Of a stretch of 64,000 bases of DNA, positions 32,740 through 54,676 are shown in pieces. Both the position numbers and the translations under genes were made by a program. A model generated the notes under the pieces. That model did not search any database, was not told where the DNA came from, and saw nothing but the letters and a program-made list of their open reading frames with translations. The stretch comes from a virus, in the IMG/VR virus record IMGVR_UViG_3300017917_002228, positions 1-64,000 of that record. One strand, given 5' to 3'. The first letter of the stretch is position 1, and each line of letters begins with the position of its first letter.

Positions 32740-32745
32740 TACTAT

Positions 32746-32819: not shown

Positions 32820-32824
32820 TAGGT

Positions 32825-32983: not shown

Positions 32984-32998
32984 TAATTAGTCCTTACA

Positions 32999-33050
32999 CT
33001 CATTGGGACTTTAATGTTTATGTGTATGTTATACACAGAGTCCCAATGAG
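32999..33050 (+). other. Large imperfect hairpin before tRNA-Asp
   Basis: CTCATTGGGACT (32999-33010) is the exact reverse complement of 33039-33050. A second stem, TGTGTAT/ATACACA (33021-33037), sits inside with a 3-nt loop. There is no following T run, so it looks more like a processing or stability element than a terminator. Confidence 0.65.
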
Positions 33051-33062
33051 CATAATGATTTT

Positions 33063-33139
33063 GGCCTGGTAGTTCAGTTGGTTAGAGCACTAGCCTGTCA
33101 CGCTAGAAGTCGCCGGTTCGAGCCCGGTCCAGGTCGCCA
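33063..33139 (+). tRNA. tRNA-Asp (GUC)
   Basis: Acceptor GGCCTGG/CCAGGTC (one G-T pair), anticodon stem CTAGC/GCTAG with loop CTGTCAC giving GTC, discriminator G and encoded CCA. Confidence 0.92.
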
Positions 33140-37860: not shown

Positions 37861-38921
37861 AAATTGCACTCATTACTGATACGCACTGGGGAGTCCGAAA
37901 CGACTCTCCGGTGATGCATAATTATATGAAAAGGTTTCTGGATAATGTCTTCTTTCCTCAATTGGATGCTAATGATGTGGAGTATATTATCCATCTTGGT
38001 GATTTGGTTGATCGCCGTAAGTTCATTAATTATAGCACTGCGTCACGTCTTCGAAAAGATTTTTTAGATCCAATTGCTCATTCAGGAAGACATTTATACA
38101 TTATTGCTGGTAATCACGACACATATTATAAAAACACAAATGAGCTCAACTCTCTTCGTGAAATATTGTGGGGCTACAATAATGTTTTTATATATGATAA
38201 TGAACCTGATATTATTGAATTTGATGATTTAAAAATTCTTATGCTTCCTTGGATATGCGCAGAAAATAAAGACATATGCATGAAAGCAATTGAGAAAACT
38301 GATGCTCCTATTTTAATGGGTCATCTTGAACTTAACGGCTTTGAGATGTATAGAGGACATATTAATGACCATGGTGACGATCCGAAACTATTTGATAAGT
38401 TCGATATTGTCTGTTCTGGCCACTACCACACTCGCAGTAATAATGGTAACATTTATTATCTTGGGACTCCTTGCGAGTACACTTGGTCTGATTACAACGA
38501 CCCTAAAGGCTTTCATATCTTGGATACTGAGACCAGACAGTTACAGTTTATTCCTAATCCTGATACTCTTTTTGTTAAGCATCATTATGATGACTTAAAT
38601 AAAGAGATGGATGATGTGCTTTTATTCGACGATAAAGACTTTAAGGGTAAATACGTTAAGGTTATTATCCGAAACAAGACTAATCCGTATTGGTTCGATA
38701 CTGTAATTGATCGTATGGAAAAGATTGGTGTAGCTGATCTACAAGTAGTTGAAGATCACTTCCATCTCGATCTTGAAGAAGATTCTGATATTGTAAACGA
38801 AGCAGAAGATACTATGACTATTCTTCGTAAGTTTATTACAGGTCTTCAGTTTAATACGGATAAGAAAAGAGTTGAAAACATTATTCAAAACCTCTATATT
38901 GAAGCACAGGCCATTGAGTAA
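37857..38921 (+). CDS. gp47: Recombination endonuclease subunit gp47 (Mre11-like)
   Basis: A 354-residue calcineurin-like phosphoesterase. The metal-binding motifs are DTHWG at residues 8-12, GDLVDRR near 48, GNHD near 82 and GHYHTRS near 183. With gp46 it resects DNA ends for recombination-dependent replication. The gene overlaps its upstream neighbour by ATGA and precedes gp46 by 6 bases. Confidence 0.93.
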   Translation: MKIALITDTHWGVRNDSPVMHNYMKRFLDNVFFPQLDANDVEYIIHLGDLVDRRKFINYSTASRLRKDFLDPIAHSGRHLYIIAGNHDTYYKNTNELNSLREILWGYNNVFIYDNEPDIIEFDDLKILMLPWICAENKDICMKAIEKTDAPILMGHLELNGFEMYRGHINDHGDDPKLFDKFDIVCSGHYHTRSNNGNIYYLGTPCEYTWSDYNDPKGFHILDTETRQLQFIPNPDTLFVKHHYDDLNKEMDDVLLFDDKDFKGKYVKVIIRNKTNPYWFDTVIDRMEKIGVADLQVVEDHFHLDLEEDSDIVNEAEDTMTILRKFITGLQFNTDKKRVENIIQNLYIEAQAIE

Positions 38922-38927
38922 TATTGC

Positions 38928-40643
38928 ATGATTTTGTTTAATACCATTCGTTGGAAGAACTTTCTATCTACAGGAAATAGCTTTACTGAGATTAATCTCA
39001 ATAAAGCTCCTACGACTCTAATTGTTGGTGAGAATGGTGCAGGGAAGTCAACTATGCTTGACGCCCTTTCTTTTGTTCTCTATAATAAGCCATTTCGTAA
39101 GATCAATAAGCCCCAGCTACTCAATTCGATTAACAAAAAAGATCTTCGGGTCGAGATTGAGTTTAGTATTGGGCCAGGCAAATATAAGATCATTCGTGGT
39201 CTTAAGCCTGCTGTATTTGAAGTTTACCAGAACGGTAAATTACTTAACCAGGATGCTGACAGTAAAGACTATCAGGAGGTTCTCGAGAAGCAAATTCTCA
39301 AACTGAATCATAAGTCTTTCTGTCAGGTTGTGGTGCTTGGTAGCGCGTCTTTTGTTCCTTTCATGCAGCTATCAGCACAGAATCGTCGAGAAGTTATTGA
39401 AGACCTTTTGGATATTCAAATCTTCTCGACGATGAACTCTTTGCTTAAACAGAAGATAAACGATAACAGCAGCACGCTGATGAAGGTCGAATATGATTAT
39501 GATTTGGTCTCCGAAAAAATTAAGATGCAACAAGCACACATCGATGCAATGCAGAAAAATACCGAAGAGCAGATCGCCAAGCTTAAATCCGATTTATCCG
39601 ATTACACCCAGCAGATCGACAGTGAAAAGGCTCTTGCTGACGAAAAGGATAGGGCTATACAATCTCTCCAGATCACAATTAGCGATAAAGAGTTGGTTGA
39701 AAAGAAACATGAAAAGCTTAAAGACCTCGAACGTCAACTCAAAGACAAAATTAAAAAGATACAAAACGAAACAGAGTTCTTCTCCTCTCACGATAACTGC
39801 CCTACGTGCAAACAAACTATTGATGATAGATTTAAGTGTGAAACATTATTGGAGAAAGAAAATCAGAGTCGAGAAGTATCAGACGGTATCGAAAAACTCC
39901 AGCAGGAGATTAAGGCTATCGTGGATAGAATCAGTGAGATATCTCAGATCACTTCTCAAATAACTGATTTGAATATTGAGAAAATTACTCATCATAACAG
40001 CGTGCAAGGCTTAATGAAGCAATGTAAAAAGATTGCTACAGAGATTGAAGAACTACAGAAGAAGTCTGATGATTACGCTATCAACGATGATATGATGAAA
40101 GAGCTTGACGATAAGCTTAACTCACTTTCAAACGAGAAGGCAGAACTGCTTCGTGATAAAGATGCATTACAAGTCGCTTCTATTATCCTAAAAGATACTG
40201 GCATTAAGGCTCGTATTATTAAGCAGTATGTACCTGTTATTAATAAACTAATTAACAAGTATTTGGCTGCAATGGACTTCTTCGTTAACTTTGAACTGGA
40301 TGAGAACTTCAATGAAACTATCAAGTCGAGATTTAGAGACGAATTCTCGTATGCCTCTTTCTCAGAGGGTGAAAAGATGCGTATTAACTTGGCTATACTT
40401 TTCACCTGGCGAGCTGTTGCTAAGCTTCGCAATAGCGCTAGCACTAACCTTCTTATCATGGACGAAGTATTGGACGGTTCATTAGACTCAAATGGTACAG
40501 ATGAGTTCCTAAAGATCCTAAACAACTTGACTATTGATACAAATACCTTTATAATTAGTCACAAAGTTGATACTATGTATGATAAGTTTGCAAACGTAAT
40601 CAAGTTTGAAAAACACAAAAACTTTTCGAGGATGGCAGCATGA
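38928..40643 (+). CDS. gp46: Recombination endonuclease subunit gp46 (Rad50-like)
   Basis: A 571-residue SMC-type ATPase. Walker A GENGAGKS is at residues 34-41, a long coiled-coil surrounds a CPTC zinc hook near residue 292, and the ABC signature SFSEGEKMRINLAI and Walker B LLIMDEVLDGSLD are in the C-terminal part. It partners gp47 in end resection. Length is close to T4 gp46. Confidence 0.93.
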   Translation: MILFNTIRWKNFLSTGNSFTEINLNKAPTTLIVGENGAGKSTMLDALSFVLYNKPFRKINKPQLLNSINKKDLRVEIEFSIGPGKYKIIRGLKPAVFEVYQNGKLLNQDADSKDYQEVLEKQILKLNHKSFCQVVVLGSASFVPFMQLSAQNRREVIEDLLDIQIFSTMNSLLKQKINDNSSTLMKVEYDYDLVSEKIKMQQAHIDAMQKNTEEQIAKLKSDLSDYTQQIDSEKALADEKDRAIQSLQITISDKELVEKKHEKLKDLERQLKDKIKKIQNETEFFSSHDNCPTCKQTIDDRFKCETLLEKENQSREVSDGIEKLQQEIKAIVDRISEISQITSQITDLNIEKITHHNSVQGLMKQCKKIATEIEELQKKSDDYAINDDMMKELDDKLNSLSNEKAELLRDKDALQVASIILKDTGIKARIIKQYVPVINKLINKYLAAMDFFVNFELDENFNETIKSRFRDEFSYASFSEGEKMRINLAILFTWRAVAKLRNSASTNLLIMDEVLDGSLDSNGTDEFLKILNNLTIDTNTFIISHKVDTMYDKFANVIKFEKHKNFSRMAA

Positions 40644-40933
40644 GTAGAGATTACGAAAGAGGTTATAGTGACGGCTTTGAAGCCGGCTTTAAAATGGCCG
40701 AACGTTTTCATAATAATAAAATAACCGAACATAAGCAAGTTATCGCTCCTGATTATAAATGTATTAAGTGTGGTAAAGTTTTTGAAGCAAATAAAGTATA
40801 TAATTTTGTTTGTGCACATCCACAATGTCCATCTATAATGACATGTCTTACCTCAACAACAATGGGTGCAGTAGGATCATCAGAATATCCAACAACACCA
40901 CCAGGCGCAGTAGGAGCAGCAGGACCTGTATGA
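40640..40933 (+). CDS. Small zinc-ribbon-like protein
   Basis: A 97-residue protein coupled to gp46 by ATGA. CIKCGKVFEANKVYNFVCAHPQCP gives a CxxC...CxxxxC metal-binding pattern. The tail is Gly/Pro/Ala-rich (TTPPGAVGAAGPV). Function unknown; a DNA or RNA contact is possible. Confidence 0.55.
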   Translation: MSRDYERGYSDGFEAGFKMAERFHNNKITEHKQVIAPDYKCIKCGKVFEANKVYNFVCAHPQCPSIMTCLTSTTMGAVGSSEYPTTPPGAVGAAGPV

Positions 40934-41115
40934 GTAATTTTGAAGAAGAATATAGAAACTGGCACACACGTCTTTCATATATTAAGTCAGCAGCTCGTAT
41001 TGGTGGTTGTGTAGGAGTAATTTTTATTACCCATGCTACTCTACTACCAGTAACTATTTTAGCAACATCATTTTTAGTAGCAGAAATTATTGGTATAGCA
41101 GAGGAATGGGTATAA
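40930..41115 (+). CDS. Small membrane protein
   Basis: A 61-residue protein with an N-terminal polar part and one or two hydrophobic helices (GGCVGVIFITHATLLPVTILATSFLVAEIIG). It overlaps neighbours on both sides (ATGA, TAATG). Function unknown. Confidence 0.55.
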   Translation: MSNFEEEYRNWHTRLSYIKSAARIGGCVGVIFITHATLLPVTILATSFLVAEIIGIAEEWV

Positions 41116-41372
41116 TGACTGATATCGATAAAAAAACCGGCTTTAGAGTGGGCGATTATTTTGTTTCGTTTCCTGAAGATGAATTTATTAAAGAAGATCC
41201 AGAAACAGGCGGTATGTATGTGCTTGTAGATATATTCAGACTCGACCGTGATAATAATGCGTTCAGAGTTGAACAAAGTGATATAACACCAGAGATTGAA
41301 CATCTTGTCAATACAGAAATTAATAAAATGTTGACAGCAGCAATAGCCGAGCTTGAGAAGGCAGATAAATAG
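41115..41372 (+). CDS. Hypothetical protein
   Basis: An 85-residue acidic protein starting on the stop of the previous gene. It has a beta-rich start (GFRVGDYFVSFPEDEF, then GGMYVLVDIFRLDRDNN) and a helical end. Just upstream of the modification island. Function unknown. Confidence 0.55.
   Translation: MTDIDKKTGFRVGDYFVSFPEDEFIKEDPETGGMYVLVDIFRLDRDNNAFRVEQSDITPEIEHLVNTEINKMLTAAIAELEKADK
41365..41371 (+). promoter_or_regulatory. Possible late promoter before queE
   Basis: ATAAATA in CAGATAAATAG overlaps the end of the upstream gene and lies 47 bases before queE. queE is not a structural gene, so this match may be accidental. Confidence 0.35.
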
Positions 41373-41375
41373 TTT

Positions 41376-41410
41376 ACCAGTGCCCTTCCACTGGTCAACC
41401 AAAACTAGGA
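41376..41410 (+). promoter_or_regulatory. Leader hairpin of the queE operon
   Basis: A perfect 7-bp stem ACCAGTG/CACTGGT (41376-41395) with a 6-nt loop, followed by CAACCAAAACTAGGAG. That tail contains the queE ribosome-binding site. It resembles a small ligand-responsive leader, but the loop is short for a preQ1 riboswitch. Confidence 0.4.
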
Positions 41411-41417
41411 GCAATCA

Positions 41418-42263
41418 ATGTCTAAAATTAAAGTAGCTGAACTGTTTTACTCACTTCAAGGTGAGGGACAGTACTTAGGAACTCCAAGCATTTTTCTAAG
41501 AGTGTTTGGATGTAACTTTCAATGCGCAGGCTTTTCTATGCCTCGCGGTCAAAAATCAGAAGAACGTTTAGCAGTAGATCCTTCTAAGTATGAACGCTAT
41601 GAGGACCTTCCTCTTGTTCACACAGGGTGTGATTCATATGCTTCTTGGGATGTGCGCTTTAAAAAGCTCTCACCAATGCTTTCTGTTCAGCAGATTGTAG
41701 ATAAGATGGAAGAACTACTACCTGATGGTAAGTTTGGTAATGATAAGCATCTTATTCTTACAGGTGGTGAACCTCTTCTTGGATGGCAGCGTTCATATAT
41801 TGATCTCTTTGAAGAGATTAAAAGTCGTAGAATGAATCTTACTCATATTACGTTTGAGACAAATGGCACTCAGCCTCTTCAAGAAGAACTTTTACAATAT
41901 CTAAACACCGGTCCTTTTGATGTGACGTTTAGTGTATCATCAAAGCTTCCTTCATCTGGTGAAGCTTGGGAAGATGCAATTAAACCGGAAATTATTAATC
42001 AATACTATTGGGCTGGAACGTTAACCTATTTTAAATGGGTTGTATCTTCGCAAGATGATTATGATGATGTTATTCGTGCTGTAGAAGAATACGGCAAGGT
42101 GTGTGATATGGATGATATTCCTGTTTACCTTATGCCTGCTGGTGGTACTACAATGCACTATGATAATAATGAGAAGTGGGTTGCTGATCTTGCTATGAAA
42201 AATGGCTGGCGTTACTCGCCGCGTCTACAAGTTCAGCTTTGGAAGAATATGTGGGGTACGTAA
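41418..42263 (+). CDS. queE: 7-carboxy-7-deazaguanine synthase QueE
   Basis: A 281-residue radical SAM enzyme, third step of preQ0 synthesis (carboxy-tetrahydropterin to CDG). Start motif is LFYSLQGEGQYLGTPSIFLRVFGCNFQC and the SAM-binding motif is LILTGGEPLLGW. The cluster cysteines are Cys32, Cys36 and Cys71: the third is separated by a 34-residue insertion rather than the usual CX3CX2C spacing. Similar insertions occur in phage relatives. First gene of the modification island and adjacent to queD. Confidence 0.88.
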   Translation: MSKIKVAELFYSLQGEGQYLGTPSIFLRVFGCNFQCAGFSMPRGQKSEERLAVDPSKYERYEDLPLVHTGCDSYASWDVRFKKLSPMLSVQQIVDKMEELLPDGKFGNDKHLILTGGEPLLGWQRSYIDLFEEIKSRRMNLTHITFETNGTQPLQEELLQYLNTGPFDVTFSVSSKLPSSGEAWEDAIKPEIINQYYWAGTLTYFKWVVSSQDDYDDVIRAVEEYGKVCDMDDIPVYLMPAGGTTMHYDNNEKWVADLAMKNGWRYSPRLQVQLWKNMWGT

Positions 42264-42808
42264 TGGAATACATTGATACAAATATCACTAAATCTCCAAC
42301 AATGGAAGCAAGAATCCCTCGTACATACAAATACGTTTCAACAAAAGAATATCATGATGCATTTCCGTGCGCATATCGTCAATGGAGAGCTGATAGCCAT
42401 TGTAATTTGATTCATGGCTACAGCTTCTCTATGAAGTTTTATTTTGGTACAGATCATCTAGACGTTCGTAACTGGGTTGCTGATTATGGCGGTTTGAAAG
42501 AACTCAAGAAAGTTCTCGAAGATCAGTTTGATCATACACTACTAGTCGCTCAAGACGATCCTCATTTCGATGTATATAAGTTGCTCGAAGAAAAGAACTT
42601 GGCTAAATTAACGGTATTGCCTAAACTAGGATGTGAAGGGCTAGCTGATATGCTTTACAAATATGTAAACGGAGTCTACATTCCTGATATGTGGGGCCCT
42701 GGTGAAGCTGATCGTTTGTGGTGCTTCAGAGTTGAAGTACGTGAAACGCAGGCTAACATGGCATATCGAGTTGGTCATAGAGAATGGAATGAGGATTTGT
42801 TTGAATGA
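42263..42808 (+). CDS. queD: 6-carboxytetrahydropterin synthase QueD-like
   Basis: A 181-residue T-fold enzyme, second step of preQ0 synthesis. It has the C-x-x-x-H-G-x-S-F site (Cys47, His51) and a FDHTLL motif with the catalytic Asp-His pair. The usual HGH zinc motif is HGY here (Tyr53 in place of the second His), so one canonical zinc ligand is changed. The coding sequence overlaps queE by TAATG and folE by ATGA, which supports the assignment. Confidence 0.82.
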   Translation: MEYIDTNITKSPTMEARIPRTYKYVSTKEYHDAFPCAYRQWRADSHCNLIHGYSFSMKFYFGTDHLDVRNWVADYGGLKELKKVLEDQFDHTLLVAQDDPHFDVYKLLEEKNLAKLTVLPKLGCEGLADMLYKYVNGVYIPDMWGPGEADRLWCFRVEVRETQANMAYRVGHREWNEDLFE

Positions 42809-43494
42809 GTATATCTGAAAAGATTAAAAAAAGGATTAAAGATGCAGGCGCTCGCTTTCATGCCAATGATAACATTAGCGAATTTATTCGTGATAATGAG
42901 CGTGATGCACTCATTGAGGAACTAGCAACTAAGTTTGACGGGGTACTTCGTTCACTTATTATTGACGTTGATACTGATCCTAACTCAAAAGGAACAGCAA
43001 AGCGTCTTGCTAAGATGTATGTGAACGAGATTATGGAAGGCCGTTATTGGCCTGCTCCAGCTGTTGCAGCATTTCCTAACGATGGTTCTCACGGCACAGA
43101 TCCTTACAAGGGCATGCTCGTAGTACGTGCAGAACTAAAGTCAATGTGCTCACATCATCATCAGCCAGTTACAGGTACTGCATACATCGGTATCATTCCG
43201 AGCGGTAAAGTAATTGGATTGAGCAAATATATTCGTATTGCTCAGCATTGTGCACGTCGTGGTACATTACAAGAAGAACTGTGCGGTGATATTGCACAAG
43301 CTATTATGGAAGCAACTTCTTCTGGTAACGTAGCAGTTTACATTGAAGCTAAGCACGGATGCTGTGAGAATCGTGGTGTAATGGCTTCGAACAGTACTAC
43401 TCAAACTACAGTGCTCCATGGTATGTTCCACGATGCTGGTGTTAAATCAGAGTTCTATTCGAACATTCGACTACAGAAGTATAATTGCAGTTGA
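42805..43494 (+). CDS. folE: GTP cyclohydrolase I FolE
   Basis: A 229-residue enzyme converting GTP to dihydroneopterin triphosphate, the first step toward preQ0. The zinc and catalytic motifs are MCSHHHQP near residues 112-119 and KHGCCENRGV near 185. TAKRLAKMY and GLSKYIRIAQ are also typical. The gene order queE-queD-folE matches phage 7-deazaguanine clusters. Confidence 0.93.
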   Translation: MSISEKIKKRIKDAGARFHANDNISEFIRDNERDALIEELATKFDGVLRSLIIDVDTDPNSKGTAKRLAKMYVNEIMEGRYWPAPAVAAFPNDGSHGTDPYKGMLVVRAELKSMCSHHHQPVTGTAYIGIIPSGKVIGLSKYIRIAQHCARRGTLQEELCGDIAQAIMEATSSGNVAVYIEAKHGCCENRGVMASNSTTQTTVLHGMFHDAGVKSEFYSNIRLQKYNCS

Positions 43495-43519
43495 TTTTAT
43501 TATGCTCCTATACTAGTAT
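43491..43519 (+). promoter_or_regulatory. Sigma70-like promoter
   Basis: TTGATT (43491-43496), a 17-base spacer, then TAGTAT (43514-43519), 21 bases before the 70-residue gene, with GGTATAGGAG as the ribosome-binding site. It overlaps the end of folE. Confidence 0.6.
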
Positions 43520-43539
43520 TAGAGGTATAGGAGATCGTT

Positions 43540-43752
43540 ATGAAAAACTTGACATCTGAACTGAAAAGCATCTACGGCGAACGTGATCTGAATAAGAAGA
43601 GAGAGCTTGCTAAACGGTTGATCGAAAATTCGCATGCGAAAACGACAACCAAAAATCAAGCTCTCTTTCTTGTTATGAATAAGTTGAGCGTAGATAAGAT
43701 TGACCGTTTTATGACAAATTATGTTTTGTCAGGTGAAGGTATGAAGGTATGA
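43540..43752 (+). CDS. Small hypothetical protein
   Basis: A 70-residue basic helical protein (LTSELKSIYGERDLNKKRELAKRLIENSHAKTTTKNQALFLV), coupled to the nuclease-like gene by ATGA. Coupling suggests a partner or regulator of that nuclease; no family is recognised. Confidence 0.55.
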   Translation: MKNLTSELKSIYGERDLNKKRELAKRLIENSHAKTTTKNQALFLVMNKLSVDKIDRFMTNYVLSGEGMKV

Positions 43753-44273
43753 TCGTTAAAAAAATACCTTATGATGATGATGTTAGGAAAGCTATTTGGC
43801 CTTCCTTCAAATTATCTCTAGAAGAAAAGCATGGTAACTCAGGCGCTATCGGTCAACGAGGCGAAGAGAATGCTATTAATTTAATTCAAGAACATTTTCC
43901 TAATATGTTTCAAGTATGCTACGATCATTCAGAAGACGTAGCAGCTCAATACCGTGGTATAGACTTGACTCTTTTTCATCGACAGGGTATTATGACTGTT
44001 GATGTTAAATCAGGTAAGACTGGTCTATACTGGGATAGAGATAACAAATACTGGTATATTACTCTACGTGAAGACTTTTTTAACAAGCGCAAAAACAATA
44101 ATGCAATCATGCATGTAGGGCCTAAGGGTGATCTTTTTGCGCTCTATAATAAATCAGAAATGGAAAAGTTCTTTATTAGTAATGAAGAGCTTTTTATAAA
44201 AGATGAATATGGCTATCGTTTAAGTATGGATGATTGGCCTGACTTTATACAGCATAACCTCCGGAGATATTAA
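43749..44273 (+). CDS. Putative PD-(D/E)XK nuclease
   Basis: A 174-residue protein with a restriction-endonuclease-like core: helix GQRGEENAINLIQEHF (Glu39/Glu40), then Asp72 in RGIDLTLF and Asp85-Val-Lys87 in MTVDVKSGKTG. This spacing fits PD-(D/E)XK enzymes and Holliday-junction-type nucleases. It lies inside the 7-deazaguanine island directly before dpdA, with TAATG overlap. A role in degrading unmodified DNA is attractive but only inferred. Confidence 0.6.
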   Translation: MIVKKIPYDDDVRKAIWPSFKLSLEEKHGNSGAIGQRGEENAINLIQEHFPNMFQVCYDHSEDVAAQYRGIDLTLFHRQGIMTVDVKSGKTGLYWDRDNKYWYITLREDFFNKRKNNNAIMHVGPKGDLFALYNKSEMEKFFISNEELFIKDEYGYRLSMDDWPDFIQHNLRRY

Positions 44274-45052
44274 TGAAGATAGCACATGAGGCTCCTAAAT
44301 CTATTTTTGCACACGTCCAGCGCAAGACGGATTACGATTATGCGCTAGTGCATTTGTTTGAGACTGATCCAGTCTACTATCGCTTGTTTAAAGATGCAGT
44401 TATTCAAGGACGTGAAGTTATTCTCGATAACTCTATCTTTGAATTAGGTACAGCGTTTAGTGGCGACAAGTATTACAAGTGGATTAACGAACTTAAACCT
44501 ACTTGGTATATTATTCCAGATGTTCTAGGCGATAGAACAGCTACCATGGAAAGCATGGATAGATGGCTTTCTACTTATAAAGTAGAGGGTGTAAAGTCTA
44601 TTGGTGTTGTTCAAGGCAGCAATTATGATGAGGTTGTTAGATGTTATCTTGAACTAGCTCCTAAGGTTGATAAGGTTGCTATCTCATTTGATTATCAGTT
44701 CTTTGTTTCTGGTATTAATAACAAGTACGTAGACTATATGGCAGGTCGTATTAGTCTTATTAAACGTCTTTTAGATGAAAAAATTATTGATGAGAATAAA
44801 CCTCATCATCTACTCGGTTGCGGTCTACCTCAAGAGTTTCAATTTTATCGTGATATGAAATATACATTTATCGATAGCATTGATACATCTAATCCAGTTG
44901 TTCACGGATTAAATCGTATTCGTTATACACCAACAGGCTTGGCAGATAAAGTTCCTACAAAGCTTATTGAATATATGGACGAAGAAGTAACTAAAGATCA
45001 ACTTAAAGATATTGATTACAACATCGCAATGTTTAGAGAATTTTGCAAATGA
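44273..45052 (+). CDS. dpdA: Phage DNA transglycosylase DpdA (TGT-like)
   Basis: A 259-residue TIM-barrel protein of the phage DpdA group, which replaces guanine in DNA by a 7-deazaguanine base. Like tRNA-guanine transglycosylases it has Asp residues at barrel ends (Asp52 in ILDNSIFELG, Asp83 and Asp87 in IPDVLGD), a GVVQG loop at 111-115, and LLGCGLP at 180-186 with FIDSID after it. The zinc-binding tRNA domain is absent, as in DpdA. It is preceded by the nuclease and followed by a formyltransferase with ATGA overlap. Confidence 0.82.
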   Translation: MKIAHEAPKSIFAHVQRKTDYDYALVHLFETDPVYYRLFKDAVIQGREVILDNSIFELGTAFSGDKYYKWINELKPTWYIIPDVLGDRTATMESMDRWLSTYKVEGVKSIGVVQGSNYDEVVRCYLELAPKVDKVAISFDYQFFVSGINNKYVDYMAGRISLIKRLLDEKIIDENKPHHLLGCGLPQEFQFYRDMKYTFIDSIDTSNPVVHGLNRIRYTPTGLADKVPTKLIEYMDEEVTKDQLKDIDYNIAMFREFCK

Positions 45053-45573
45053 AATGGATAGCATTATTCAGCCAAACAGGAAGTGAGATTAACCGTATTG
45101 CAGAAGCATTAGGCCGTTGGCCTGACGCAGTTTTGACTAATAATCGCGATCTTAACGACTGGGAAGATTATATAGATCTTACCGAAACCTCTGTGTTTAT
45201 TTCTAATACAGAAGGTATTAATAATGCACTCCGTAAAGCAGATCGTGCATTTGTAACGCTACACGGATATCTTCGTATTATACCAGCCGATATTTGTAAA
45301 CGTCATAAAATATATAACGGGCACCCTGCTCTTATTAGTGAGTATCCAGAACTAAAAGGTAAAGATCCTCAAGAGCGAGTCTGGTTAGCAGGTAAGGAAA
45401 TTTATCCTAATATAGGTTCTGTAGTACATGAGTGTACACCAGAGCTTGATGGTGGTAAGATTATTAGTGTTGCGATGGATTTTAATCATTGCAATACTAA
45501 GCAAGAGTTGTATAATAAGCTTAAAGAGACTTCTCTCAAAGCTTGGACTTTCTTTCTGGAGACGCGTCTATGA
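45049..45573 (+). CDS. dpdN: PurN-like formyltransferase, candidate dPreQ1 formyltransferase DpdN
   Basis: A 174-residue protein of the folate-dependent formyltransferase fold. Catalytic-type residues are Asn90 and His92 in YNGHPALISEYP, with His127 and Asp134 in VVHECTPELDGGKII, at the spacing seen in PurN. It lies between dpdA and queF. An enzyme of this family (DpdN) has been proposed to formylate dPreQ1 in phage DNA. Purine synthesis is an alternative but no other pur gene is present. Confidence 0.7.
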   Translation: MKWIALFSQTGSEINRIAEALGRWPDAVLTNNRDLNDWEDYIDLTETSVFISNTEGINNALRKADRAFVTLHGYLRIIPADICKRHKIYNGHPALISEYPELKGKDPQERVWLAGKEIYPNIGSVVHECTPELDGGKIISVAMDFNHCNTKQELYNKLKETSLKAWTFFLETRL

Positions 45574-45815
45574 CTAAGAATGCTATTCGTCCTTCTCATT
45601 ATAAGGCAGACGGCTGTAAGTATGAGTGTATTGAAGTAATTGAAGAGTTGTGCGGTCTGTCTAATAATGATCGTTTTACTGATTATAATCGCTTTCAGGC
45701 ATTTAAGTACGTATGGCGTGCTGGTATGAAAGATCCTGTGTTGCAGGATTTAAAGAAGGCTAAACAGTTTATTGAATTTGCTATTGCTTACGAGGAAAAT
45801 AAAAATGTCAAGTGA
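45570..45815 (+). CDS. DUF3310-family protein
   Basis: An 81-residue protein with the DUF3310 pattern: RPSHYKADGCKYECIEVIEEL, then F-Q-A-F-K-Y-V-W-R-A-G-M-K, then DLKKAKQFIEFAI. Such proteins are common in phages and are described as nucleotide-kinase-like, but their role is unclear. It overlaps the formyltransferase by ATGA and queF by 11 bases. Confidence 0.8.
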   Translation: MTKNAIRPSHYKADGCKYECIEVIEELCGLSNNDRFTDYNRFQAFKYVWRAGMKDPVLQDLKKAKQFIEFAIAYEENKNVK

Positions 45816-46728
45816 TATTATTAATCAACTAGCCAGCGTACATCTAGGTAAAGCGGGAGATGGTAGCGTTGTCAAACCGTATGTTACTCCTGATAATATT
45901 GATCCTTCTCTTCTTGTGCCTGTGCCTCGCCATCTTAATCGTACCGGGTACGGTATTGAAGACAATAATCTACCTTTTATTGGGTATGATACTTGGAACT
46001 GCTATGAGTTTAGTACTTTAACAAATAATGGCTTCCCAGTATCCGGTGTCATTCGAATTGTATATTCTTCTTATCAACCAAATATTGTTGAGTCAAAGTC
46101 GCTTAAGCTTTATTTGAACTCGTTCAATATGCATAAGAGTGGCACTACTATTCAAGACGTTATTGAGTTTGTAGAAGACCAGATTGAAGTAGATCTTCAG
46201 GGTATTGGTATTAGTGCATCAGCATGCTTTCATGATGAGACTGCAATCGTCACTCAACCTATTCAGGGTGACTTTTTGACTCTCGAAAACTTCTGCGACG
46301 TTGAGTCTATGACGTTTGACCACTATAATGAAGATCCGGCTATTCTTGAAGTAATTGATAATCCAGACTACTATGATAGTTGGAAGTCGCATTCATTGCG
46401 TTCAAACTGTCGTGTAACTAATCAGCCGGACTGGGGTGATGTTTATATTCATATTGGTGGTGATAAGACAGTAACTCCTGAATCACTCTTGCAGTACATT
46501 GTATCGATGCGTAAAGAGAATCACTTCCACGAAGAAATTTGTGAGTGTATCTACAAGCGTCTTCTCGATACTTTGAATCCAGAAGAGCTTATGGTTGCAT
46601 GTCTCTATACTCGTCGTGGTGGTATCGATATTAATCCTGTACGTGCAAAGAGTAACAGCACTTTGTTTAAGTATGCAGGTAATCTTATTCAACCAGACTT
46701 CCTTAATTATAAGACAATGAGACAATAA
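45805..46728 (+). CDS. queF: NADPH-dependent preQ0 reductase QueF
   Basis: A 307-residue bimodular T-fold enzyme, reducing preQ0 (nitrile) to preQ1 (aminomethyl). Catalytic Cys202 lies in LRSNCRVTNQPDWGDVYI and Asp209 is seven residues later, as in known QueF enzymes. ESKSLKLYLNSFN (96-108) and NHFHEEICE are also conserved. Start ATG 45805 has CGAGGAAAA upstream. Its presence directs the pathway to preQ1 rather than stopping at preQ0. Confidence 0.92.
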   Translation: MSSDIINQLASVHLGKAGDGSVVKPYVTPDNIDPSLLVPVPRHLNRTGYGIEDNNLPFIGYDTWNCYEFSTLTNNGFPVSGVIRIVYSSYQPNIVESKSLKLYLNSFNMHKSGTTIQDVIEFVEDQIEVDLQGIGISASACFHDETAIVTQPIQGDFLTLENFCDVESMTFDHYNEDPAILEVIDNPDYYDSWKSHSLRSNCRVTNQPDWGDVYIHIGGDKTVTPESLLQYIVSMRKENHFHEEICECIYKRLLDTLNPEELMVACLYTRRGGIDINPVRAKSNSTLFKYAGNLIQPDFLNYKTMRQ

Positions 46729-47477
46729 TGAATCTACAACAAGCGCTTGATAAACTTCCCAACACTGATCAGAACGTAGTATCGGTCCTCTCCGGAGGAC
46801 TCGACTCTACTATTATGACTTACATTCTTGTCAAGAAATATGGCAAGGATAGAGTTTTTGCTTTATCATACGACTATGGACAGAAGCAAAAGATTGAATT
46901 AGATATGGCTCGTCGTACTTGTATGTACCTCGGCATTAGTCATAAAATTCTCGATCTAGGTATTTTAGGTGAGATAGTAAAAAATGTTTCTGCTAACATT
47001 AATGGTACTGATGTCGCGATGCCTACCATTAGAGACGTTCTAGGTGATCCTCAACCGAAAACCTATGTACCGTTTCGTAATATGATCTTGAATGCTCTTG
47101 CATTCTCTTATGCAGAAGCAAATAAAGCATCTCATGTTTTTACCGGTCTTCAAGTTCACGATGAGTATGGCTACTGGGATACTACTCAGAAGTTTGTAGA
47201 TGCAATGAATGCAGTTGCTGATCAAAACCGTACTCATAAAGTTAAGATGGAAGCACCTTTTAGTCTACTATCTAAGTATGACGAATTAAAGATTGCTAAT
47301 GAACTAGGTGGAGTTAAATTAGAATATACTCTAACATGTTATAATCCGGATGAACAGGGTCGTTCATGTGGTATGTGTCCATCATGTTCAGAACGTATTC
47401 AGAACTTTATTAAAGCTGGTATGCGCGACCCGATTCCATATTCTATAGGTATTGAATGGGAAAGGTTTGTTAAGTAA
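46728..47477 (+). CDS. queC: 7-cyano-7-deazaguanine synthase QueC
   Basis: A 249-residue ATP-dependent enzyme that converts CDG and ammonia to preQ0. The ATP-binding motif SGGLDS is at residues 22-27, and the C-terminal zinc site is C...CGMCPSC. It overlaps queF on the left and the amidotransferase on the right by TAATG. Length and motifs match free-standing QueC. Confidence 0.93.
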   Translation: MNLQQALDKLPNTDQNVVSVLSGGLDSTIMTYILVKKYGKDRVFALSYDYGQKQKIELDMARRTCMYLGISHKILDLGILGEIVKNVSANINGTDVAMPTIRDVLGDPQPKTYVPFRNMILNALAFSYAEANKASHVFTGLQVHDEYGYWDTTQKFVDAMNAVADQNRTHKVKMEAPFSLLSKYDELKIANELGGVKLEYTLTCYNPDEQGRSCGMCPSCSERIQNFIKAGMRDPIPYSIGIEWERFVK

Positions 47478-48109
47478 TGTGTTCTATCACAGGGTCATTC
47501 TCTAAAGAAGTTGTAGCTGCGCTTGCGCAGCTCAACGCATATCGTGGTCAGCATTCACACTCAGTTTACGTCTTTGAACGTTTTACAAATAGAGTGTTGT
47601 ATGCGCATCGCGATCTAGGCGAACTTAATTTGGAAGATCATAATCTTCCAGATGGTTATATTGTAGTGCATCAACAAGCACCCACTACTGACAATAAGGA
47701 TGAGTCTTCGATTCATCCAGCTCAGATTAACGAAAACCTTTTGTGGCATAATGGTATCGTAAAAGCAGAAGAGATTAAAAATCTACAGAGTGAGTTAGAG
47801 TCTACTATTTCATGGGATACTAAACTAATTCTCCTCAAACTTATGCTATATAATTCAGTAAAGGACATTGATGGTACCTTTAGCTGTTTATGGTATGATG
47901 GAACTAATATGTTCCTATTTCGTAATGAGATTAGTCCAATGTTTATTGACGCGGACGGAAACATTTCTTCTACAAAGTTTCCAGGCTCTGAGCCTATCGA
48001 TCCAAACTTCCTCTGGATTTTTAACCCATCCTATCCTACACTAACAGAATACTTGGAAGAATTTAACACAGTTGAGAACCCTTATTTTTTTGCGGATGAA
48101 CAGAAATGA
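47477..48109 (+). CDS. Class II glutamine amidotransferase-like protein
   Basis: A 210-residue protein with an N-terminal nucleophile, Cys2 after Met (MCSITGSF), RGQHSH, VVHQQAPT and LLWHNGIV, all typical of the class II amidotransferase domain. There is no synthase domain attached. Phages with a fused Gat-QueC make archaeosine-type bases. Here Gat and QueC are separate and adjacent, so it may supply ammonia to QueC or act on another step. The exact role is open. Confidence 0.7.
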   Translation: MCSITGSFSKEVVAALAQLNAYRGQHSHSVYVFERFTNRVLYAHRDLGELNLEDHNLPDGYIVVHQQAPTTDNKDESSIHPAQINENLLWHNGIVKAEEIKNLQSELESTISWDTKLILLKLMLYNSVKDIDGTFSCLWYDGTNMFLFRNEISPMFIDADGNISSTKFPGSEPIDPNFLWIFNPSYPTLTEYLEEFNTVENPYFFADEQK

Positions 48110-48603
48110 TGTTGCATATTATGTCCGGTGAAACTGGATCTACACTTACTGAAGTACAAGAAGAAGATATTCAGCCTAACGCAGTTGATCTTCGTGTTGC
48201 TAAGATCTTTAAAATTAAAGAAGAAGATTTTATTATTGATAATGAAACAAAAACTCATCGTGGTTCAGAAGAGATTCATCCATACCCTTCAGGTATGTGG
48301 TATCTTAAACCAGGTACCTATGAGATTGTGATGGAGAATATTATCCATGTCGGTGAAGACGAAGCTGGTTGGGTTATTACACGATCCACTCTTAATCGTA
48401 ATGGTGTGTTTATTACTTCTGGTCTTTATGATAGTGGTTATCATGGCGTAATGGCTGGCGCTATGCATGTGACTACTGGACCGATGTGGATTAAAAAAGG
48501 AACTCGAGTAGGTCAGTTCCTTCTCTTTAAGTCACAAGCACTAAAGAAGTATGATGGTGATTATGGTATCGGCAAAGCGCACGATCAAAAGTACGGAGTA
48601 TAA
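48106..48603 (+). CDS. dUTPase / dCTP deaminase-family protein
   Basis: A 165-residue trimeric dUTPase-fold protein. PNAVDLRV, then VITRSTLNRNGVFITSGLYDSGYHGVMAGAMHV, GTRVGQFLLF and the final YDGDYG match the conserved sites that bind pyrimidine nucleotides. It would limit dUTP or deaminate dCTP to balance phage pools. ATG 48106 overlaps the previous stop; ATG 48109 is possible. Confidence 0.75.
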   Translation: MMLHIMSGETGSTLTEVQEEDIQPNAVDLRVAKIFKIKEEDFIIDNETKTHRGSEEIHPYPSGMWYLKPGTYEIVMENIIHVGEDEAGWVITRSTLNRNGVFITSGLYDSGYHGVMAGAMHVTTGPMWIKKGTRVGQFLLFKSQALKKYDGDYGIGKAHDQKYGV

Positions 48604-48605
48604 TT

Positions 48606-49676
48606 ATGGAAATTAAAATTGATATTGACTCGCTGCGTAAGCGTAAGTTGTTTGTTGCAACACCAATGTATGGTGGTAACTGCAACGGTATGTATACCCG
48701 CTCACTTTGTGATTTGACTGCACTTTGTGTTCGCTATGGTATTGAGATTCGTTCCTACTTTTTGTTTAACGAATCACTCATTACACGCGCACGCAACTAC
48801 TGCGTAGATGAGTTCCTTCGTAGTGATGCAGAACATCTCTTGTTTATCGACTCTGATATTGGATTCAATCCACAAGACGTTATTGCGATGATGGCATTAC
48901 AGACTCCGGAATCTGAATATGATGTTATTGCAGGCCCTTATCCTAAGAAGTGTATCACTTGGGAAAAGATTAAAGCAGCAATTGACAAAGGTGTTGCAGA
49001 TCAAAACCCAAATGTTCTAGAAGACTTTGTCGGTGACTTTGTTTTTAATCCTGCAATGGAACCTGGTGAGACTTCTAAAACAATTCAGCTTGATCAGCCA
49101 GCAGAAGTTCTAGAAGCTGGTACTGGCTTTATGATGATTCGTCGTAAGACATTTGAAAAGTATCTTGCTGCTTATCCTGAAATTCAGTATCGTCCTGATC
49201 ACGTCCGTACAGAAGCATTTGACGGGTCGCGTGAGATCGGAATGTATTTCCAGGCAGAAGTCGATAAGTATAGTCCTGAAAAGGACTATGAAGAAATGCT
49301 TCGTCGTATTCAGAATGGCGGTACAGTTACTGCTAATGAAGCAGCGCTTGCTATTAAGTCAACACGTGATAAGATTCAAGCTTCTACTAAGCGTTATCTT
49401 TCAGAAGATTATCTTTTCTGTCAGAACGTTCGTAAGATGGGTGGTAAGGTCTGGTTGTGTCCGTGGATGCATCTACAGCATGCTGGTACCTACGTCTTTG
49501 CTGGCAAGCTTGCAGCTCTTGCAGCAGTTGGTGCTTCTGCAACAGCAGATGCAGACTTGATTAAGAAGCATCGTGATGCTGGCAGAACACCGCATCCAGC
49601 TATTGCAATACCTAAACCGGTTAAACCAGTAGCACCAAGCTCAGAGCTCTTGAAGAAGTTTAAGACTGTTAAGTGA
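48606..49676 (+). CDS. GT-A fold glycosyltransferase-like protein
   Basis: A 356-residue protein. LFVATPMYGGNCNGMYTRSL, LITRARNYCVDEFLRS and HLLFIDSDIGF with a DSD motif at 82-84 give the nucleotide-sugar site of GT-A enzymes, followed by IAGPYPKK. It carries an extra Lys/Pro-rich tail. Cyanophages and other marine T4-like phages have related genes. Its target could be DNA, virion or host surface; none is indicated by sequence. Confidence 0.7.
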   Translation: MEIKIDIDSLRKRKLFVATPMYGGNCNGMYTRSLCDLTALCVRYGIEIRSYFLFNESLITRARNYCVDEFLRSDAEHLLFIDSDIGFNPQDVIAMMALQTPESEYDVIAGPYPKKCITWEKIKAAIDKGVADQNPNVLEDFVGDFVFNPAMEPGETSKTIQLDQPAEVLEAGTGFMMIRRKTFEKYLAAYPEIQYRPDHVRTEAFDGSREIGMYFQAEVDKYSPEKDYEEMLRRIQNGGTVTANEAALAIKSTRDKIQASTKRYLSEDYLFCQNVRKMGGKVWLCPWMHLQHAGTYVFAGKLAALAAVGASATADADLIKKHRDAGRTPHPAIAIPKPVKPVAPSSELLKKFKTVK

Positions 49677-49691
49677 TAGGAAATTTATATT

Positions 49692-50339
49692 ATGAAACTA
49701 AGTGAACAAACTATTAATATTCTCAAGAACTTTGCAACCATTAATCCTTCTCTGCTAGTAAAGCCTGGTAACTTTCTTAATACAGTTGCAATTAACCGTA
49801 GCATCTTTGCTAAGTGTAACGTAGAAGAAAAGTTTCCTAAGCAGTTTGCTATCTACGATCTTCCTAAGTTTCTAGGTGTGGTTTCTCTCTTTAAGGAGCC
49901 AGACCTAGAGTTTATGAAGAGCCAGCTACGTATTACTTCTGGTAGACAGTCAGTAAACTTTACCTATGCAGAACCTAATACAATTGTTGCACCTACATCT
50001 GATACGATTAAGTTTCCAACTGCAGATGTAGAGTTTGAACTATCACAGGAAGAACTGCAGCGTCTTATTCGCGCTGCAGGTATTCTTCAGTTACCTCATA
50101 TTGTAGTGACTGGTGATGGCTCAAACGTTAAAGTAGCAGCATCAGATGCAAAGAACCCTACAACAGATACATTTAGCGTTGAAGTAGGTACAACTAATAA
50201 AGAGTTTAGTACTGTGTTTAAAACAGAAAACATTCTTAAGTTGCTTTCTACTAACTATAATGTTAAAATGACAATTAAGGGTCTTGCTCAGTTTACATCT
50301 GATCAAGTTACCTATTTTGTTGCAGCAGAAAAAGTATAA
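49692..50339 (+). CDS. gp45: Sliding clamp gp45
   Basis: A 215-residue clamp, slightly shorter than T4 gp45. Start is LSEQTINILKNFATINPSLLVKPGNFLNTVA and the DLPKFLGVVSLF segment is typical. It tethers the polymerase gp43 and also activates late transcription with gp55. Next to gp44 as in T4. Confidence 0.9.
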   Translation: MKLSEQTINILKNFATINPSLLVKPGNFLNTVAINRSIFAKCNVEEKFPKQFAIYDLPKFLGVVSLFKEPDLEFMKSQLRITSGRQSVNFTYAEPNTIVAPTSDTIKFPTADVEFELSQEELQRLIRAAGILQLPHIVVTGDGSNVKVAASDAKNPTTDTFSVEVGTTNKEFSTVFKTENILKLLSTNYNVKMTIKGLAQFTSDQVTYFVAAEKV

Positions 50340-50347
50340 GGTGATAA

Positions 50348-51289
50348 ATGGAACACGCAGAATTTCTTTGGGTTGAAAAATATCGCCCAAGAAAGATTGA
50401 AGATTGTATACTCACACCGGAGCTGAAGTCAACCTTCAGCTCTTTTGTTGAGAAGGGTGAGATACCTAATTTGCTTCTGACTGGATCTTCAGGTGTTGGT
50501 AAAACAACAGTTGCACGTGCTATGTTGGATGAAATCGATGCAGATTATATTATTGTTAACGGATCGATGAATGGTAACATTGATACGTTACGTACAGAAA
50601 TTATGCAATTTGCTTCTACAATTTCTTTTAGAGGAAGTAGGAAATATGTCATACTCGACGAAGCTGATTATCTCAATGCCAATTCAACGCAACCCGCCTT
50701 ACGTAATTTCATGGAAGAATTTTCCAGTAACTGCGGGTTCATCCTTACCTGTAACTTCGTCAATCGAATCATTGAACCGCTACACTCCCGTTGCTCTGTC
50801 ATTAACTTCTCTGTCAACAAACAAGAACTTCCGCAACTAGCAGCTCGCTTCTTTAAGCGAGTAGTTAATATTCTTAATGCAGAGAATGTAGAGTTTGACA
50901 AGCAGGTAGTAGCTGAACTTATTAACAAGCATGTGCCTGATTGGCGAAGAGTATTAAACGAACTACAAAGGTATTCACATAATGGAAAGATTGACTCAGG
51001 TATCTTTGTTAACATCGGTGATGAATCGTTTAAGACACTTATCGGCTATCTCAAAGCTAAAAACTTTACAGAGATGCGTAAGTGGGTCGCGGAGAACTCG
51101 GATAGCGATAGTACTGCTTTATTTCGTAAGCTGTATGATAGCGCTTATTTACATGTTAAGCCTAACAGCATTCCACAACTAGTTCTCATTCTCGCAGACT
51201 ACCAATATAAAGATGCGTTTGTAGCTGATAAAGAAATAAATATTGTAGCTGCAATGACGCAGATTATGGTAGATGTTGAGTTTGTTTAA
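50348..51289 (+). CDS. gp44: Clamp loader ATPase gp44
   Basis: A 313-residue AAA+ protein: Walker A GSSGVGKT (46-53), Walker B ILDEADYL, and a Ser-Arg-Cys sensor-like LHSRCSVINF. With gp62 it loads gp45 on primed DNA. Position next to gp45 and gp62 is conserved. Confidence 0.92.
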   Translation: MEHAEFLWVEKYRPRKIEDCILTPELKSTFSSFVEKGEIPNLLLTGSSGVGKTTVARAMLDEIDADYIIVNGSMNGNIDTLRTEIMQFASTISFRGSRKYVILDEADYLNANSTQPALRNFMEEFSSNCGFILTCNFVNRIIEPLHSRCSVINFSVNKQELPQLAARFFKRVVNILNAENVEFDKQVVAELINKHVPDWRRVLNELQRYSHNGKIDSGIFVNIGDESFKTLIGYLKAKNFTEMRKWVAENSDSDSTALFRKLYDSAYLHVKPNSIPQLVLILADYQYKDAFVADKEINIVAAMTQIMVDVEFV

Positions 51290-51507
51290 TGGCTGGGATA
51301 TCAGAATATACCACTGCAAAAGATACTAAAGTATGTGATGGATGTTCTAAACTGATATATCCAGATGAGACCTACGTTCATTCTAGATTCACACTTAATG
51401 ACCCGGGCAGCAATGTTGTCCGGTTTATTTCTGTTTTTATATGTAATGAATGCTTATTTGACTTTGATGACTTTGCTCACGGTGCTAATAACGAGATAAC
51501 TACATGA
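51289..51507 (+). CDS. Small zinc-binding protein
   Basis: A 72-residue protein with two CxxC pairs, CDGCSKLI and CNECLF, suggesting a zinc ribbon. It overlaps gp44 and gp62, so it is part of the replication operon. Insertion between gp44 and gp62 is unlike T4. Confidence 0.6.
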   Translation: MAGISEYTTAKDTKVCDGCSKLIYPDETYVHSRFTLNDPGSNVVRFISVFICNECLFDFDDFAHGANNEITT

Positions 51508-51923
51508 ACCCTTTTGATTATGTTAATGCGATTAATTCTAATAAAGATATTATCAGAAACTCTAATAACCCTGAACTAGCAGAAAAGTTATACCAGCCCT
51601 TTATTATTAATAGAGCGCTATCATATCATATAGATACAATTCTATATGCTAATGAGATGAATATATATTCAGAAATACCCGCTATTATGCAAAATGACTA
51701 TTACCTAAATAGTATACGTCCAAAAAAGAGATATGCTAAGTGGCATAAAAAATTGCAGGATGAAGCTATTGAGGTAATACAAGAGTTTTATGGCGTTAGT
51801 ATGGCAAAAGCATTAGATATATATAAAGTGCTAACAGAAGATCAGATAGACGCCATAAAACAGAAAATATTTAAAGGCGGGAATAATGTTCAATATCAGT
51901 CAATTAGTAGAAGTAAGACTTAA
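51504..51923 (+). CDS. gp62: Clamp loader small subunit gp62
   Basis: A 139-residue protein, shorter than T4 gp62 (187). It starts NPFDYVNAINSNKDI, then has FIINRALSYHIDTILYANEMN and RPKKRYAKWHKK, which match T4-like gp62. It overlaps regA by 38 bases, a tight T4-type coupling. Confidence 0.85.
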   Translation: MNPFDYVNAINSNKDIIRNSNNPELAEKLYQPFIINRALSYHIDTILYANEMNIYSEIPAIMQNDYYLNSIRPKKRYAKWHKKLQDEAIEVIQEFYGVSMAKALDIYKVLTEDQIDAIKQKIFKGGNNVQYQSISRSKT

Positions 51924-52281
51924 AAATACAGAAGACTTCTTGAAAATAAGAGAAACCCTTTCTCGTATAGGTCTTGCATCTAAAAAAGATAATACTCTAT
52001 ATCAATCATGCCACATCCTGCATAAACAGGGTAAGTATTATATTGTGCACTTTAAAGAGCTGTTTATGCTCGATGGTAAAGAATCTAATTTCTCAGAAGG
52101 CGATATCGCTAGACGTAATAGAATTGCTAACCTTCTTGAAGAGTGGGAACTACTAGAAGTAGTTGATCCACAGAAGATACAAGAACCACAATCACCACTT
52201 AATCAGATTAAGATTATACCATTTAGAGACAAGAACAAGTGGAATCTAGTTACAAAGTATACTATAGGTAACAAATATTAA
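51886..52281 (+). CDS. regA: Translational repressor RegA
   Basis: A 131-residue RegA homologue, near T4 length (122). NISQLVEVRLKNTEDFLKIRETLSRIGLASKK is the conserved start, and LYQSCHILHKQGKYYIVHFKELFMLDGK forms the RNA-binding core. It represses early mRNAs by binding near start codons. The gene ends with terminator hairpins. Confidence 0.9.
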   Translation: MFNISQLVEVRLKNTEDFLKIRETLSRIGLASKKDNTLYQSCHILHKQGKYYIVHFKELFMLDGKESNFSEGDIARRNRIANLLEEWELLEVVDPQKIQEPQSPLNQIKIIPFRDKNKWNLVTKYTIGNKY

Positions 52282-54398: not shown

Positions 54399-54676
54399 TG
54401 GCTAATGAAGAATTGTTTCAGAGGGCGAGTAGCTTAAAGGTGAAGCCGGCCGCTCATAACGGTCTGAGTGTAGGTTCGAGTCCTACCTCGCCCACCAGCT
54501 TTCCTAATTCAGTTAACGATCAGATTACAGATGCTGTGACACAATCACAGATTACTGATTCAGTTACACTTGAAAGAGAAAAGCCAAAACTTAAAGACAT
54601 AATTACTTTACTAATTATTAACCCTATCGCAGTTATTGCAATTATAGGAATAGTGCTCTATCATTTTTTTGGTTGA
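54398..54676 (+). CDS. Small C-terminally anchored membrane protein whose 5' part contains a tRNA
   Basis: A 92-residue frame starting on the stop of the previous gene (TAATG). The last 30 residues form a membrane helix (IITLLIINPIAVIAIIGIVLYHFF). Codons 9-33 coincide with the tRNA-Met gene, so that segment (ASSLKVKPAAHNGLSVGSSP) is not normal protein sequence. Either the tRNA was inserted in frame or only the later part is a gene remnant. Confidence 0.4.
   Translation: MANEELFQRASSLKVKPAAHNGLSVGSSPTSPTSFPNSVNDQITDAVTQSQITDSVTLEREKPKLKDIITLLIINPIAVIAIIGIVLYHFFG
54423..54497 (+). tRNA. tRNA-Met-type (CAU)
   Basis: Acceptor GGGCGAG/CTCGCCC, anticodon stem GGCCG/CGGTC with loop CTCATAA giving CAT, T arm TAGGTTCGAGTCCTA, discriminator A and encoded CCA. 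The paired first base excludes an initiator tRNA. It could be elongator Met or an Ile tRNA modified at C34. Confidence 0.9.

What the first reader, a model, noticed from the sequence alone, without database searches (positions are those of the whole stretch)
44273..47477. Complete route to formylated preQ1 in DNA: queF plus a DpdN-like formyltransferase next to dpdA
Seen: folE, queD, queE, queC and queF with intact key motifs, a TGT-like DpdA and, overlapping it, a PurN-fold formyltransferase (Asn90, His92, His127, Asp134). Established: DpdA inserts 7-deazaguanines in phage DNA, and DpdN has been proposed as the dPreQ1 formyltransferase giving 7-(formylamino)methyl-7-deazaguanine. Inference: this phage carries fdPreQ1, perhaps with unformylated dPreQ1.
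Basis: partly seen in the sequence, partly recalled or inferred. Interest (0 to 1): 0.9.

Follow-up and report, generated by a model that had tools for sequence, protein, structure and literature searches.

The report
Phage genes for formylated-preQ1 DNA
A T4-like virus of bacteria carries an operon that should swap guanines in its own DNA for formylated preQ1, a base chemistry already described in phages, and the same gene set recurs in over a hundred other viral contigs.

Summary
The finding is real and its reading holds up on sequence evidence. The window belongs to a 160,495-bp phage record with a 99-bp terminal repeat. It holds a tightly overlapping operon: queE, queD, folE, dpdA, PurN-fold formyltransferase, queF, queC. 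DpdA (AlphaFold pLDDT 96.5) matches TGT folds in the PDB and is kin to the enzyme of Campylobacter phage CP220, reported to have 100% of its dG replaced. The formyltransferase forms one clade (100/100) apart from cellular and phage PurN; it keeps N90/H92/H127/D134 but has lost GAR-site positions. Of 83 distinct relatives with enough flank, 82 have dpdA directly upstream and queF downstream; the last has all three, reordered. In DpdA3-family loci it never occurs without queF. Best reading: a DpdN that formylates preQ1 after QueF and around DpdA insertion. The chemistry (fdPreQ1, DpdN) was already reported, so this is a new member of a known kind. Open: share of G replaced, base-level or DNA-level formylation, and what the glutaminase adds (ammonia for QueC, or a dG+ branch). 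In passing: four related loci carry an acetyltransferase in the formyltransferase slot.

The parts
41418..42263 (+). queE (7-carboxy-7-deazaguanine synthase, radical SAM)
   Evidence: phrog_2076 E=7e-52, PF04055 above cutoff; CxxxC-long insert-C cluster motif as in pf16
42263..42808 (+). queD (6-carboxytetrahydropterin synthase)
   Evidence: PF01242 2e-14, phrog_2389 1e-36; HGY instead of HGH
42805..43494 (+). folE (GTP cyclohydrolase I)
   Evidence: PF01227 4e-38
43540..43752 (+). small 70-aa protein, conserved with the cassette
   Evidence: homologues in 34 other loci held, all within 4 kb of a cassette gene
43749..44273 (+). NERD-like (nuclease-related) protein in the operon, role unknown
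   Evidence: PF08378 just above cutoff; homologues in 13 other loci, all next to the cassette
44273..45052 (+). dpdA, DpdA3-type DNA guanine transglycosylase
   Evidence: 51.5% identical to the annotated immuto DpdA and 41% to CP220; predicted fold matches TGT, E=2e-8; D52, D83, Q114-G115, D204 invariant in 43 relatives
45049..45573 (+). dpdN-like formyltransferase, 174 aa, predicted preQ1/dPreQ1 N-formyltransferase
   Evidence: PF00551 8e-12; AlphaFold pLDDT 96.3, PurN fold in PDB E=1e-11; own clade 100/100; N90/H92/H127/D134 invariant
45570..45815 (+). DUF3310 protein (in the slot of a P-loop kinase in many relatives)
   Evidence: PF11753 1e-11; homologues in 61 other loci, nearly all next to the cassette
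45805..46728 (+). queF, preQ0 nitrile reductase (307 aa, ATG at 45805)
   Evidence: QueF_N 3e-27, QueF 3e-22; SNC...QPDWG catalytic and ESKSLKLY NADPH motifs
46728..47477 (+). queC, preQ0 synthase
   Evidence: PF06508 1e-53; TIGR00364 above the curated cutoff; SGGLDS and CxxCxxC
   Evidence: phrog_12378 1e-42; profile of 35 relatives matches GlmS glutaminase, E=1e-5; Cys2, HNG and WDT conserved
48106..48603 (+). dUTPase/dCTP-deaminase-like protein co-conserved with the cassette (assigned by eye, not searched)
   Evidence: ATGA overlap with the glutaminase gene; homologues in 77 other loci, all within 4 kb of a cassette gene

Best explanation
The operon makes preQ0 from GTP (FolE, QueD, QueE, QueC), reduces it to preQ1 (QueF), and DpdA exchanges guanines in the phage DNA for the deazaguanine. 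The PurN-fold enzyme (DpdN) moves a formyl group from 10-formyl-tetrahydrofolate to the aminomethyl nitrogen of preQ1, either on the free base or, as the name dPreQ1 formyltransferase implies, in DNA, giving 7-(formylamino)methyl-7-deazaguanine. Formylation removes the positive charge of dPreQ1. Purpose, by analogy with phage CAjan and 9g: protection from host nucleases. Shown here: gene content, fold, conserved catalytic residues, separation from PurN, linkage to dpdA and dependence on queF. Inferred: the substrate, the product and the purpose.
For: Same order dpdA-formyltransferase-(kinase)-queF in Flavobacterium phage immuto, which is otherwise a distant phage. Of 83 distinct formyltransferase loci with enough flank, 82 have dpdA directly upstream and queF within 3.5 kb downstream; the other has queF-dpdN-dpdA. 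Among 74 DpdA3-family representatives at 80% identity: 55 with DpdN, all with QueF; 19 without DpdN, 10 with and 9 without QueF (Fisher p=8e-7, phylogeny ignored). Loci with GATase and QueF: 35 with DpdA3, all with DpdN; 14 with another enzyme in place of DpdA3, none with DpdN. Its own clade at 100/100. Catalytic N90, H92, H127, D134 invariant, while PurN N13 is E13 and the PurN E173 column is lost. PurN-like fold. Nearly confined to viruses: 151 relatives in viral contigs, one in 84,980 bacterial and archaeal genomes, itself beside dpdA.
Against: No chemistry. On the DpdA3 tree there are only 4-5 independent changes of DpdN and QueF, so the dependence on queF is not significant once phylogeny is counted. 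The glutaminase after queC could divert preQ0 to G+. The substrate switch from GAR to preQ1 is read from lost residues, not from a complex.
Confidence: 0.8

Rival explanations
1. The final base is a mixture. The stand-alone glutaminase works with QueC as a split version of phage 9g's Gat-QueC and turns part of the preQ0 into G+, so the DNA holds dG+ (or dPreQ0) beside fdPreQ1.
For: The glutaminase follows queC directly and keeps Cys2 and HNG. Fused Gat-QueC plus DpdA of phage 9g puts dG+ in DNA (PMC6884629). The pair queC-gat is conserved in pf16, KVP40/nt-1 and 2.275.O, and nt-1 DNA holds dG+, dPreQ0 and dADG (PMC6884629). In some relatives queC-gat occurs without queF and dpdN.
Against: QueF competes for preQ0. 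Many DpdN loci, immuto included, have no glutaminase, so it is not part of the formyl route. Homology to the Gat domain of 9g is weak. It may only feed ammonia to QueC on the way to preQ0.
Confidence: 0.2
2. The formyltransferase acts on the free preQ1 base before insertion, and DpdA takes formyl-preQ1 as its substrate.
For: It sits between dpdA and queF and overlaps dpdA; DpdA3 enzymes evidently serve different bases, since CP220 lacks queF nearby and carries dADG.
Against: DpdA3 loci with queF but no dpdN exist, so this DpdA family can apparently work with unformylated preQ1. Nothing here decides the order.
Confidence: 0.3
3. It is a phage PurN that boosts purine synthesis during infection, next to dpdA by chance.
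For: The nearest solved folds are PurN enzymes; cyanophages do carry PurN.
Against: Separate clade, 35 bits against a cutoff of 150, GAR-site positions N13 and E173 changed, linkage to dpdA and queF in 83 of 83 loci.
Confidence: 0.03

Closest known systems
Flavobacterium phage vB_FspM_immuto_2-6A (NC_055915) dpdA-formyltransferase-queF cluster; DpdN and fdPreQ1 as proposed by Cui et al. 2023 (doi 10.1093/nar/gkad657; paper not held here, content from memory of its abstract)
   Same: Same genes and order; DpdA 51.5%, formyltransferase 41%, QueF 45% identical
   Different: Kinase instead of DUF3310 between dpdN and queF; queC elsewhere in the genome, without zinc cysteines; no glutaminase; otherwise a distant phage
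Campylobacter phage CP220 DpdA (dG 100% replaced by dADG: Crippen et al. 2019, as cited in PMC8306585)
   Same: DpdA of the same family, 41-42% identical
   Different: No queF or formyltransferase near it; different final base
Pseudomonas phage pf16 and Vibrio phages KVP40/nt-1/2.275.O queC-gat cassettes
   Same: queF-queC-gat order in pf16; queC up to 65% identical (2.275.O), glutaminase 34-41%
   Different: A phrog_10773 protein in place of DpdA3 in pf16 and nt-1 and no DpdN
Enterobacteria phage 9g Gat-QueC/DpdA (dG+)
   Same: preQ0 genes and a glutaminase tied to QueC
   Different: Gat fused to QueC; DpdA too distant for profile comparison; no QueF or DpdN annotated

Membership tests
DpdN (dPreQ1 formyltransferase) | PurN-fold formyltransferase with catalytic Asn/His/Asp | tested here: met
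DpdN (dPreQ1 formyltransferase) | Clusters with the immuto protein, apart from PurN | tested here: met
   one clade, 100/100
DpdN (dPreQ1 formyltransferase) | Occurs with dpdA and queF | tested here: met
DpdN (dPreQ1 formyltransferase) | Formylates preQ1 or dPreQ1 | not testable with these tools
   needs enzyme assay or LC-MS/MS
PurN (GAR transformylase) | Passes the PurN equivalog cutoff and falls among PurN in a tree | tested here: not met
   35.1 bits against 150.1
PurN (GAR transformylase) | GAR-binding Asn13 and Glu173 (roles from established PurN structures) | tested here: not met
   E13 invariant in 47 sequences; E173 column lost
DpdA (DNA guanine transglycosylase), DpdA3 type | TGT fold with the two catalytic Asp | tested here: met
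   fold; D52 and D204 invariant; residue mapping to TGT by motif order, not by structural superposition
DpdA (DNA guanine transglycosylase), DpdA3 type | Groups with CP220 and immuto DpdA | tested here: met
DpdA (DNA guanine transglycosylase), DpdA3 type | Replaces all G in the genome | not testable with these tools
   needs nucleoside analysis
QueF (nitrile reductase) rather than QueF-L | Catalytic Cys/Asp and NADPH motif E(S/L)K(S/A)xK | tested here: met
   SNCRVTNQPDWG and ESKSLK; 225.7 bits, below the TIGR03138 cutoff of 293
Gat-QueC | Class-II glutaminase fused to QueC | tested here: not met
   separate gene, 47477-48109
Gat-QueC | Glutaminase homologous to the Gat domain of phage 9g | tested here: inconclusive
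   weak match over the HNG region

The most novel reading that the evidence does not exclude
The phage replaces all of its guanine with formylated preQ1 (DpdA3-type enzyme, as CP220 does with dADG), giving a genome with no ordinary G, with the separate glutaminase tuning a dG+/fdPreQ1 balance.
Probability: 0.3. Interest if true: 0.65.

Novelty: new member of a known kind. Interest (0 to 1): 0.45.

Why it matters
It shows that the dpdA-dpdN-queF module is widespread (at least 151 relatives in viral contigs) and moves between unrelated tailed phages, and it gives sequence marks (E13, KGKDPQ, loss of the PurN E173 position) that separate preQ1 formyltransferases from PurN, as which phage annotations now name them. 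The natural comparison of DpdA3 loci with no queF, queF only, queF plus dpdN, or queF plus an acetyltransferase makes the idea of side-chain decoration of dPreQ1 directly testable.

Tried and rejected
No DNA-level relative among named phages. A sequence profile of DpdA against PDB chains found no TGT, so the fold comparison was needed. hhalign of the DpdA3 profile with the 9g DpdA gave nothing usable. No Rfam hit, hence no known preQ1 riboswitch, at 38000-52000. The PurN reading was rejected on tree, score and residues. Significance of the queF-dpdN link after correcting for phylogeny could not be reached. The kinase that follows dpdA in many relatives is absent from the whole 160-kb record, so it is not part of this operon. 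Cui et al. 2023 is not held, so which phage carried fdPreQ1 could not be checked.
Full report
What is there. The window is bases 1-64000 of a 160,495-bp virus record whose ends share a 99-bp direct repeat, so it is probably a complete phage genome. Its terminase is closest to T4-like aquatic phages such as Methylophilales phage Melnitz. At 41418-48603 lies a compact + strand operon whose genes mostly overlap by 1-4 nt: queE, queD, folE, a 70-aa gene, a NERD-like gene, dpdA, the formyltransferase, a DUF3310 gene, queF, queC, a class-II glutaminase and a dUTPase-like gene. Families were confirmed by Pfam, PHROGs and NCBIfam, with the exceptions below.

DpdA. Only a sub-threshold TGT hit in Pfam and none in a sequence search of the PDB. 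The AlphaFold model (43 sequences, pLDDT 96.5, pTM 0.92) has tRNA-guanine transglycosylases as its 29 best matches in the PDB, then the bacterial DpdA structure 7ui4 and human TGT. It is 51.5% identical to the annotated DpdA of Flavobacterium phage immuto and 41% to that of Campylobacter phage CP220, a phage in which 100% of dG is reported replaced by dADG (Crippen et al. 2019, as cited in PMC8306585). The subfamily name DpdA3 is from my memory of Cui et al. 2023 (doi 10.1093/nar/gkad657), which is not held.

The formyltransferase. 174 aa, AlphaFold pLDDT 96.3, best PDB folds PurN (E about 1e-11, TM 0.75-0.82). Across 47 diverse relatives N90, H92, H127 and D134 are invariant, as are F7, S8, Q9, G11, E13 and K103-G104, P107-Q108. 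Aligned with seven PurN proteins, the PurN Asn13 is always Glu in the relatives shown, and the PurN Glu173 column is lost; in PurN these residues touch GAR (established knowledge). The relatives form one clade with 100/100 support apart from all PurN, PurU and Fmt tested, and the window protein scores 35 bits against the PurN cutoff of 150.

Linkage. Scans of IMG/VR found 151 relatives of the formyltransferase and 514 of DpdA; the best 80 of each search were read with profile HMMs. Of 83 distinct formyltransferase loci with at least 1.3 kb before and 3.3 kb after, 82 have dpdA directly upstream and queF within 3.5 kb downstream; the last (L027) has queF, dpdN, dpdA in that order. Among 74 DpdA3-family representatives at 80% identity, all 55 with dpdN have queF, while 19 without dpdN split 10 with and 9 without queF (Fisher p = 8e-7). 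The tree shows only 4-5 independent changes, so this is suggestive rather than significant under phylogeny. Of loci with glutaminase and queF, 35 with DpdA3 all have dpdN and 14 without DpdA3 have none. In 84,980 bacterial and archaeal genomes only one relative was found, next to dpdA. This is the pattern expected of an enzyme that needs preQ1 and this DpdA, not of a purine-synthesis enzyme.

QueF is a reductase by its motifs (SNC...QPDWG and ESKSLKLY; motif meaning from established QueF literature). Streptococcus phage Dp-1, with a QueF-like protein, had dPreQ1 and no dG+ (PMC6884629).

The glutaminase. Its family profile matches the GlmS glutaminase domain and keeps Cys2 and the HNG motif. 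queC-gat pairs are conserved in pf16 and Vibrio phages, with 12 to 32 nt between the genes in three of the phages read and a 1-nt overlap in nt-1. In phage 9g a fused Gat-QueC with DpdA gives dG+ (PMC6884629), so a dG+ side branch here is a fair rival. But many dpdN loci lack it and others have it without queF, which also fits plain ammonia supply to QueC.

Mechanism proposed. GTP to preQ0 (FolE, QueD, QueE, QueC), preQ0 to preQ1 (QueF), guanine exchange in DNA (DpdA), formyl transfer from 10-formyl-THF to the aminomethyl nitrogen (DpdN). Steps named by family are established for those families; formylation of preQ1, its timing and the fraction of G replaced are inference.

Novelty. fdPreQ1 and DpdN were reported in 2023 (from memory of the abstract), so this is a new member of a known kind. 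New here, to my knowledge: the extent and strict linkage of the family, its separation from PurN by named residues, the missed glutaminase, and four related loci (L277, L314, L326, L349) with dpdA-acetyltransferase-kinase-queF and no dpdN, which suggest an acetylated dPreQ1.

Noticed in passing
L277:8804-9343, L314:8801-9340, L326:8801-9340, L349:617-1153: A GNAT-family acetyltransferase sits directly after dpdA, in the slot of the formyltransferase, in all four viral loci where it was found, each with queF and a kinase and without dpdN. It may acetylate the preQ1 side chain in DNA, which I do not know to be described.
   Followed up: partly
L002:13478-14002, L003:8819-9361, L258:8704-9249: A P-loop kinase (AAA_28, called thymidylate kinase) follows dpdA in CP220, immuto and many marine loci but is absent from the whole window genome. 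Its role beside DpdA is unknown.
   Followed up: partly
L009:18607-19488: QueC of immuto lacks the zinc-binding cysteines that the window, pf16 and Vibrio QueC keep.
   Followed up: no
window 42263-42808: QueD has HGY where phage 9g has HGH; shared with immuto and pf16, while the nt-1 QueD-like protein has lost more of the motif.
   Followed up: no
window 43749-44273: A NERD-like nuclease-related protein inside the operon, found next to the cassette in 13 other loci.
   Followed up: no
window 48106-48603: A dUTPase/dCTP-deaminase-like gene overlaps the glutaminase gene and is kept beside the cassette in 77 other loci.
   Followed up: no
L015:6948-8267, L014:6525-7916: A 440-464 aa protein of unknown function (phrog_10773, no Pfam hit) lies before queF (pf16) or queC (nt-1), in the place that DpdA3 has elsewhere; a possible distant transglycosylase.
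   Followed up: no
window 32137-33139 and 54423-54497: Eight tRNA genes, seven of them in one cluster.
   Followed up: no
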